A DNA stretch of 64,000 nucleotides from Haloterrigena salifodinae (GTDB lineage: Archaea > Halobacteriota > Halobacteria > Halobacteriales > Natrialbaceae). The notes under the pieces were generated by a model. That model saw only the letters and a program-made list of their open reading frames with translations. It searched no databases and had not been told where the DNA came from. Both the position numbers and the translations under genes were made by a program. Positions 22,012 to 50,700 of this stretch are shown here, in pieces. Position 1 is the first letter of the stretch, and every line of letters begins with the position of its first letter. The stretch spans positions 946,995 to 1,010,994 of the forward strand of contig NZ_RQWN01000001.1 of the NCBI RefSeq assembly GCF_003977755.1, in the 5' to 3' direction.

Positions 22012-22293
22012 TTACTCCTCGGCGTCGTCGATCCGATCGGCGTGCTTCTCGAGGTCGGCCGCGAGCGTCCGCGCCTGGTCGGCCGTCAACTCGAGTTCTT
22101 CCATGTGGGCGGGGAGGTGTTCCTCGGTCATATTGTCGAGTTCGAACTGCAGTCGGACGCAGTCGGGGTTCTCCTTGTCCGAGGTCGCGTTCGCGACGGC
22201 GAACGCCTCGGTCTCGAACTCCTGGCCCCTCGCGACGGCGTCGACCAGATCGAGCGTCGTGTAGGCGTTGACCTTCATCAGTCGGTCGGTCAT
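22012..22293 (-). CDS. Small conserved haloarchaeal protein, 93 aa (DUF6360-like)
   Basis: A 93-aa protein read leftwards from ATG at 22293. MTDRLMKVNAYTTLDLVDAV, VANATSDKENPDCVRLQFEL and ELTADQARTLAADLEKHADR are regular features of a haloarchaea-only family that I recall as DUF6360 (tentative). It is likely a compact alpha/beta domain with no obvious active site. It is convergent with the CBS gene. The structured intergenic element at 22388 starts 95 nt upstream of its ATG. Confidence 0.75.
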   Translation of the reverse strand: MTDRLMKVNAYTTLDLVDAVARGQEFETEAFAVANATSDKENPDCVRLQFELDNMTEEHLPAHMEELELTADQARTLAADLEKHADRIDDAEE

Positions 22294-22387: not shown

Positions 22388-22605
22388 CACCACGAAAGTC
22401 CCACCCGTACCCGCTGGCCGGTCAAGCAACCGTGGGTGGGACTGAAAGGGGCTGCTGTTGAGCGGACGCGGAGCGTCCGCGATGTCCGGGGGAGCTTCGC
22501 TCTCCCGCTGCCTCCGGGAAGACGGACGACGTAAGCACCGCAGGCCAAAGGCCGAGGAGCGCAACGAGGCCATTGACCGGAGTCAGCAGGGGCTTTCGTG
22601 GTGGT
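22388..22605. other. Structured intergenic element, copy 1
   Basis: The 375-nt gap 22294-22668 has no gene. Instead it holds a set of perfect or near-perfect pairings. CACCACGAAAG (22388-22398) is the reverse complement of CTTTCGTGGTG (22593-22603), closing a 216-nt loop. GTCCCACCC (22398-22406) pairs with GGGTGGGAC (22434-22442). GCGGACGC-GGA-GCGTCCGC forms an 8-bp hairpin at 22462-22480. A further GGGGGAGC/GCTCTCCC hairpin and GGCC-AAA-GGCC follow. The boxes GAAAGGGGCTG (22444) and CAGGGGCTTTCG (22587) recur in copy 2 at 50448. It may be an ncRNA or a MITE-like element; strand is undetermined. Confidence 0.65.
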
Positions 22606-50364: not shown

Positions 50365-50447
50365 TCGCACCGGAACGGGTGTTTTCGTCGTGTGATCTAT
50401 GAACAGAAGCGTGAGTCGTTCGTTTCGAGAACGAATGGCTCGAGAAC

Positions 50448-50608
50448 ACCACAATCCCATCCGCGGTGGCCTGCCCGACCAGTCGATACGGGTGGGAAGG
50501 AAAGGGGCTGGCGCGGTCGATCCCTCCCGGGCGCAGTAAGGACCACAGCGAAGCGAGGACCGCAGCAAGCCCCGGAGGGTCGAGCGTGCCAGGGGCTTTC
50601 GCGGTGGT
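50448..50608. other. Structured intergenic element, copy 2
   Basis: The 336-nt gap 50365-50700 contains a shorter relative of the element at 22388. ACCAC (50448) pairs with GTGGT (50604); TCCCATCCG (50455-50463) pairs with CGGGTGGGA (50489-50497, one G-T); GGAAAGGGGCTGGC (50499-50512) faces GCCAGGGGCTTTC (50588-50600), pairing through CTGGC/GCCAG. TCGATCCCTCC (50518) pairs with GGAGGGTCGA (50575) apart from one bulged T. Both copies begin TCGARAACACCAC and end GGGGCTTTCGYGGTGGTC. It precedes the LLM monooxygenase, whose TATA-like CAATTAAG is at 50669-50676. Confidence 0.65.
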
Positions 50609-50700
50609 CACATCGGCGACGCAACGAACGAATCCAAACCGGTACACAACCAGTTGCTGGCTCACCAACAATTAAGCCGATTCCACGTGATATCGGGCAT

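What the first reader, a model, noticed from the sequence alone, without database searches (positions are those of the whole stretch)
22388..22605. Elaborately base-paired intergenic element, copy 1: candidate ncRNA or MITE-like element
An intergenic 218-nt stretch has closing arms CACCACGAAAG/CTTTCGTGGTG that match perfectly over 11 bp across 216 nt. It has an inner hairpin GTCCCACCC/GGGTGGGAC, an exact 8-bp hairpin and two further hairpins. GTCCC could alternatively pair with GGGGC near the 3-prime arm, so two exclusive folds are possible. The same boxes in the same order occur 28 kb away. Two diverged sequences keeping the same pairings is what selection on RNA structure, or a family of short mobile elements with terminal inverted repeats, would give. 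I cannot assign it to a named RNA family.
Basis: partly seen in the sequence, partly recalled or inferred. Interest (0 to 1): 0.7.

Follow-up and report, generated by a model that had tools for sequence, protein, structure and literature searches.

The report
Haloarchaea-wide structured interspersed RNA-like repeat
The two intergenic elements are copies of an apparently undescribed repeat, present up to about 160 times per genome in salt-loving archaea, whose sequence drifts while its hairpin is kept by paired mutations, and the same hairpin ends a conserved unannotated non-coding stretch next to a DNA-binding-protein gene on many haloarchaeal plasmids.

Summary
Both copies (22388-22605, 50445-50608) are degraded halves of an apparently undescribed haloarchaeal repeat family. 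The unit is GGGYGGGAMT-GAAAG-GGG-[13-bp stem of free sequence]-[conserved apical loops]-[stem']-GGG-CTTTC-NNGNTGTT. On 64 diverse units the structure pairs in 95.5% of cells, with 377 doubly changed cells against 108 in shuffles. It occurs in most haloarchaea, 1 to about 160 copies per genome; it was not found outside Halobacteria, in viral contigs or phages, or in Rfam. Stem mismatches favour G-T over A-C on the unit strand (71:20), so one strand is selected as a folded molecule. There is no target-site duplication, and IS200/RAYT and TnpB genes are missing from several high-copy genomes. The same unit ends a ~0.4-0.7 kb conserved non-coding stretch beside an OB-fold gene, matched in 168 plasmid records. 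My reading: an RNA-like 3'-terminal domain of a haloarchaeal ncRNA that also exists as a non-autonomous interspersed repeat. Transcription and the mobilising activity could not be tested here.

The parts
22388..22406 (-). Copy 1: relic of the left unit (tail CACCACGAAAG joined to head TCCCACCC, its hairpin deleted)
   Evidence: Intact pairs elsewhere have a whole hairpin between these two segments
22407..22433 (.). Copy 1: 27-nt centre between the two inverted heads
   Evidence: Centres of 95 inverted pairs are 18-28 nt long
22434..22451 (+). Copy 1, right unit: head GGGTGGGACT, base stem GAAAG (22444-22448), GGG (22449-22451)
   Evidence: Exact core
22453..22504 (+). Copy 1: extra stretch with two local hairpins (22462-22480, 22488-22506) that is not part of the consensus unit
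   Evidence: the model aligns only from 22505
22505..22592 (+). Copy 1: 13-bp arm 22505-22517/22577-22589 with the conserved apical domain, and GGG 22590-22592
   Evidence: Covariance model match, E=4.1e-11
22593..22605 (+). Copy 1: CTTTC (22593-22597) and tail GTGGTGGT
50445..50462 (-). Copy 2: relic of the left unit (AACACCAC + AATCCCATCC)
   Evidence: Orthologous site in L087 holds the intact pair
50490..50610 (+). Copy 2: complete unit
   Evidence: Covariance model match over all 122 positions, E=8.5e-19; the copy is one of the 64 model sequences

Best explanation
The elements belong to a haloarchaea-specific family whose ~110-nt unit works as a folded single strand: base stem GAAAG/CTTTC, an invariant GGG/GGG internal loop, a 13-bp stem of free sequence, a conserved apical domain, a 5' GGGYGGG and a 3' NNGNTGTT tail. 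SHOWN: the structure, its maintenance by compensatory change, its strand bias, its spread in haloarchaea, and that the same kind of unit ends longer conserved non-coding stretches beside an OB-fold gene, many of them on plasmids. INFERRED: the active form is RNA, the unit being the 3'-terminal, probably protein-binding, domain of a non-coding RNA. INFERRED: the unit also multiplies as a non-autonomous interspersed repeat (single, tandem, inverted pairs) that decays by arm deletion, which is the state of both window copies. INFERRED, weakest: the four G-tracts form a quadruplex on the duplex that a host protein recognises.
For: Covariation: 95.5% of cells paired vs 68.2% shuffled, 377 doubly changed cells vs 108, slid controls 51-84; 18 of 24 pairs with double-sided changes. 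Base stem swaps as pairs. G-T 71 vs A-C 20 on the unit strand, p=7e-8 if stems are independent. 178 of 242 haloarchaea, none seen outside the class. Promoter-like TATA boxes at fixed distance upstream of long forms in a Halorubrum-like genome and in six Haloarcula-like species. Long form conserved on plasmids next to an OB-fold gene and more stable than column-shuffled controls and than its complement. Copies differ by loss, truncation and inversion between congeners.
Against: No expression data. In the Halorubrum-like genome a TATA-like box also lies beyond the 3' end, and inverted pairs have no TATA-like box, so the boxes do not prove transcription of the unit strand. Strand bias would also fit a folded ssDNA. 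The OB-fold gene was not detected in several genomes with over 100 copies, so it is not an obligate partner of the short units. No mobilising enzyme was identified and no insertion was caught with a clean empty site. The 5' domains of the long forms differ between lineages, so a single parent RNA is not demonstrated.
Confidence: 0.5

Rival explanations
1. A REP/BIME/REPIN-like mobile DNA repeat: the hairpin is read as single-stranded DNA by an unknown nuclease that copies units or inverted pairs into intergenic DNA; any RNA is incidental.
For: Dozens of intergenic copies, singles plus inverted pairs with a fixed short centre, genus-specific variants of the ends; strand bias also fits ssDNA.
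Against: The known enzyme family for such repeats (Y1, PF01797) is absent from the host genome and from six genomes with 24-106 copies. Stems are free in sequence within a genome, unlike near-identical REP copies. Promoter-like boxes and long plasmid forms are unexplained.
Confidence: 0.3
2. A MITE or small mobile repeat (SMR) moved as double-stranded DNA by a transposase recognising the terminal inverted repeats.
For: Terminal inverted repeats AACANCNNGAAAG in inverted pairs; variable presence between congeners; SMRs of Haloquadratum also have ITRs and no target duplication (PMC3119063).
Against: Single and tandem units lack the inverted arrangement; no target-site duplication; compensatory arms and strand bias are not expected of ITR elements.
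Confidence: 0.1
3. A cis-acting RNA structure such as a bidirectional terminator or mRNA end stabiliser.
For: Almost always intergenic and, for inverted pairs, close to gene ends (median under 90 nt).
Against: Inverted pairs are, if anything, rarer between convergent genes (5 of 70 vs 43 of 267, p=0.057); no fixed orientation to genes; presence varies at orthologous sites.
Confidence: 0.07

Closest known systems
REP/BIME and REPIN repeats of bacteria (RAYT-associated)
   Same: Short intergenic hairpins in dozens of copies, singly or as inverted pairs, genus-specific, with an internal mismatch in the stem
   Different: Stem sequence is free and covaries, apical domain is conserved, unit about 110 nt, no Y1/RAYT gene in several high-copy genomes, found in archaea only
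SMRs and PATEs of Haloquadratum walsbyi (PMC3119063)
   Same: Short haloarchaeal repeats without transposase and without target duplication; SMRs have ITRs, PATEs near-terminal palindromes
   Different: SMRs are ~80-110 bp and over 95% alike within a type, and many sit inside IS605 elements; here copies diverge freely and are not at TnpB ends. SMR sequences could not be compared
IS605/TnpB ends and omega RNAs
   Same: Structured, mobile-element-linked, archaeal
   Different: Units are not at fixed positions near TnpB genes; TnpB is absent or single in two high-copy genomes
Large plasmid or phage ncRNAs of unknown function (GOLLD, ROOL type; from memory)
   Same: Long, highly folded, unannotated, plasmid-borne, linked to a protein gene
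   Different: No Rfam match; OB-fold neighbour; the 3' domain is also an interspersed repeat

Membership tests
Structured RNA family | Compensatory substitutions supporting one secondary structure | tested here: met
   377 doubly changed cells vs 108 shuffled and 51-84 slid
Structured RNA family | Strand asymmetry of tolerated mismatches (G-U over A-C) | tested here: met
   71 vs 20 with a selection neutral between the two; also fits ssDNA
Structured RNA family | Transcription of the unit strand | not testable with these tools
   Only promoter-like boxes in some lineages
Any Rfam family | Match at gathering score | tested here: not met
REP/REPIN (RAYT) system | Y1 tyrosine transposase (PF01797) encoded in the genome | tested here: not met
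   0 in host genome and in G183, G253, G085, G173, G225, G195
MITE | Terminal inverted repeats | tested here: met
   Only in inverted pairs; single units have none
MITE | Target-site duplication | tested here: not met
   No excess over shuffled flanks in 95 pairs
PATE / IS605-derived element | Ends shared with TnpA/TnpB transposons | tested here: not met
SMR (Haloquadratum) | ITR without target duplication and >95% identity within a type | tested here: inconclusive
   ITR and no TSD fit pairs; copies are far below 95% alike; SMR sequences are in a supplement that could not be read

The most novel reading that the evidence does not exclude
Haloarchaeal plasmids carry a ~0.6-kb structured non-coding RNA that works with an OB-fold (SSB/RPA-like) protein, and its 3' hairpin domain, with four conserved G-tracts that could form a quadruplex on a duplex, has spread through host chromosomes as up to about 160 SINE-like copies per genome.
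Probability: 0.2. Interest if true: 0.88.

Novelty: new variant of a known kind. Interest (0 to 1): 0.68.

Why it matters
The unit is one of the more frequent intergenic sequences of some haloarchaeal genomes and sits on many plasmids, yet I found no description in Rfam, in the plasmid gene tables or in the papers searched. Its freely varying but strictly paired 13-bp arm is unusual for a repeat and makes a question testable: what reads a stem of any sequence capped by fixed loops and a GGG/GGG bulge, and how do structured repeats spread in archaea without a recognised transposase. The plasmid non-coding stretch with its OB-fold neighbour is a concrete lead for an unknown ribonucleoprotein.

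Tried and rejected
Rfam by gathering score and by E-value: nothing relevant. tRNA/tmRNA in the window: none. Viral origin: exact core 0 in IMG/VR; unit and long form 0 in phages. IS200/RAYT and TnpB as mobilisers: rejected. Target-site duplication scan: no signal. Terminator between convergent genes: not supported. OB-fold protein as obligate partner of short units: rejected in the strict form. The string GGGACTGAAAGGGGC in the paper library: 0 papers. A four-way-junction reading of inverted pairs was set aside because single units without a CCCRCCC partner keep GGGYGGG and the GAAAG/CTTTC covariation. A first G-T/A-C count was discarded because its selection step favoured G-T; the neutral recount is.

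Full report
Observation. The stretch folds better than all 200 dinucleotide shuffles (z -5.0). The second copy is at 50445-50608. The 21-nt core GGGTGGGACTGAAAGGGGCTG occurs twice in the window at up to 3 mismatches (expected 0.00) and 15 times in the host genome, with 0 in reversed controls.

Anatomy. Among 324 distinct occurrences of the core in 251 loci, 272 have a downstream GGGGCTTTC-like end closing a stem, most often 13 bp. The unit is GGGYGGGAMT-GAAAG-GGG-stem13-apical loops-stem13'-GGG-CTTTC-NNGNTGTT. The stem sequence is free; the apical part keeps GACGYAAGSACCGCAG...GAGGASCGCAGCGAG. Units occur singly, head to tail (host locus L006), convergent, or as inverted pairs with an 18-28 nt centre (95 pairs). 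Long single-unit forms in three genera keep GGGYGGG without a CCCRCCC partner.

Window copies. Copy 1 is an inverted pair whose left hairpin is gone (CACCACGAAAG fused to TCCCACCC) and whose right unit carries two extra hairpins; copy 2 is also a half. A 96%-identical congener lacks copy 1 but has a short palindrome (AAACA/TGGTGTT) at the site. At the copy 2 site the five genomes compared range from an intact pair in the opposite orientation (L087) to a short remnant (L085). Copies are gained or lost and inverted on a genus time scale; for copy 1 the direction is not decided.

Selection on structure. On 64 diverse units, 95.5% of cells pair against 68.2% after shuffling; 377 cells change on both sides against 108; slid controls give 51-84. 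Base-stem letters swap together (GAAAG/CTTTC, CAAAG/CTTTG, GAACG/CGTTC, GGAAG/CTTCC, TAAAAG/CTTTTA) while GGG/GGG stays. A count that treats G-T and A-C alike in selecting stems gives 71 G-T and 20 A-C on the unit strand (p=7e-8 if stems are independent, which related copies are not fully). One particular strand is thus favoured as a folded molecule, RNA or ssDNA.

Distribution. The motif is in 178 of 242 Halobacteria, up to 164 places per genome. The covariance model finds one to a few copies in many genomes that the motif misses and none outside Halobacteria in a phylum sample (stricter filters). The exact core is absent from IMG/VR and the element from phages.

Mobilisation. No target-site duplication. 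PF01797 is absent from the host genome and from six genomes with 24-106 copies. TnpB is absent or single in two such genomes, and units do not sit at TnpB ends. No partner enzyme was found.

Long forms. In a Halorubrum-like genome, copies carry a 5' domain with a TATA-like box 10-20 nt before its conserved start; another TATA-like box lies about 35 nt beyond the unit's end, so boxes alone do not prove transcription of the unit strand. In six Haloarcula-like loci a GTATATAA box precedes a ~0.4 kb highly conserved stretch ending in the exact unit, divergent to an OB-fold gene. A second subfamily (TGGYGGACTCAGAAAGGGCGAG...CGAGGGCTTTC) ends a ~0.6-0.7 kb stretch beside an OB-fold gene. blastn with that stretch plus the first ~100 nt of the gene matches 168 plasmid records, 54 of them over at least 80% of the query; weaker matches may rest on the gene part alone. 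Of 14 annotated records read, 13 have the gene at this border, and the stretch holds no feature or only a small hypothetical ORF. It folds far better than column-shuffled controls and better than its complement. The OB-fold family is in 209 of 242 genomes but was not detected in some with over 100 copies. By sequence its OB domain resembles archaeal SSB proteins.

Interpretation. I favour an RNA-like 3'-terminal domain of a haloarchaeal ncRNA that also exists as a non-autonomous interspersed repeat; an ssDNA-recognised repeat is the main rival. Transcription, binding partner, quadruplex formation and active mobility are all untested. The library holds open-licence papers only, so 'undescribed' means not found there or in Rfam.

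Noticed in passing
L380-L385, L392, L394, L395, L399-L403, L421-L434: Haloarchaeal plasmids share a module of an OB-fold 'DNA-binding protein' gene, often followed by a TFB-like gene, with a divergent ~0.6-0.7 kb conserved unannotated non-coding stretch.
   Followed up: partly
L270-L289 (Halorubrum-like genome G187): Downstream of many units is a tandem array of ~60-bp degenerate repeats, each with GGGGCTTTGGAGGTGTTC and a TATA-like TTATTTATAA box.
   Followed up: no
L087 vs window 50445-50608: At the orthologous site the whole inverted-pair element lies in opposite orientation in a congener, suggesting recombination between its inverted repeats.
   Followed up: no
L154, L169, L210, L227 and Halonotius loci L207, L215, L236: About 30 nt outside the inverted pairs there is a further genus-specific inverted repeat (GTGTTTAGTTAAG or GGTRCTGTTCAGA), as if the pair sat inside another small element.
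   Followed up: no
window 22012-22293: The small gene next to copy 1 belongs to Pfam DUF6360 (PF19887, E=1.2e-27), of unknown function.
   Followed up: no
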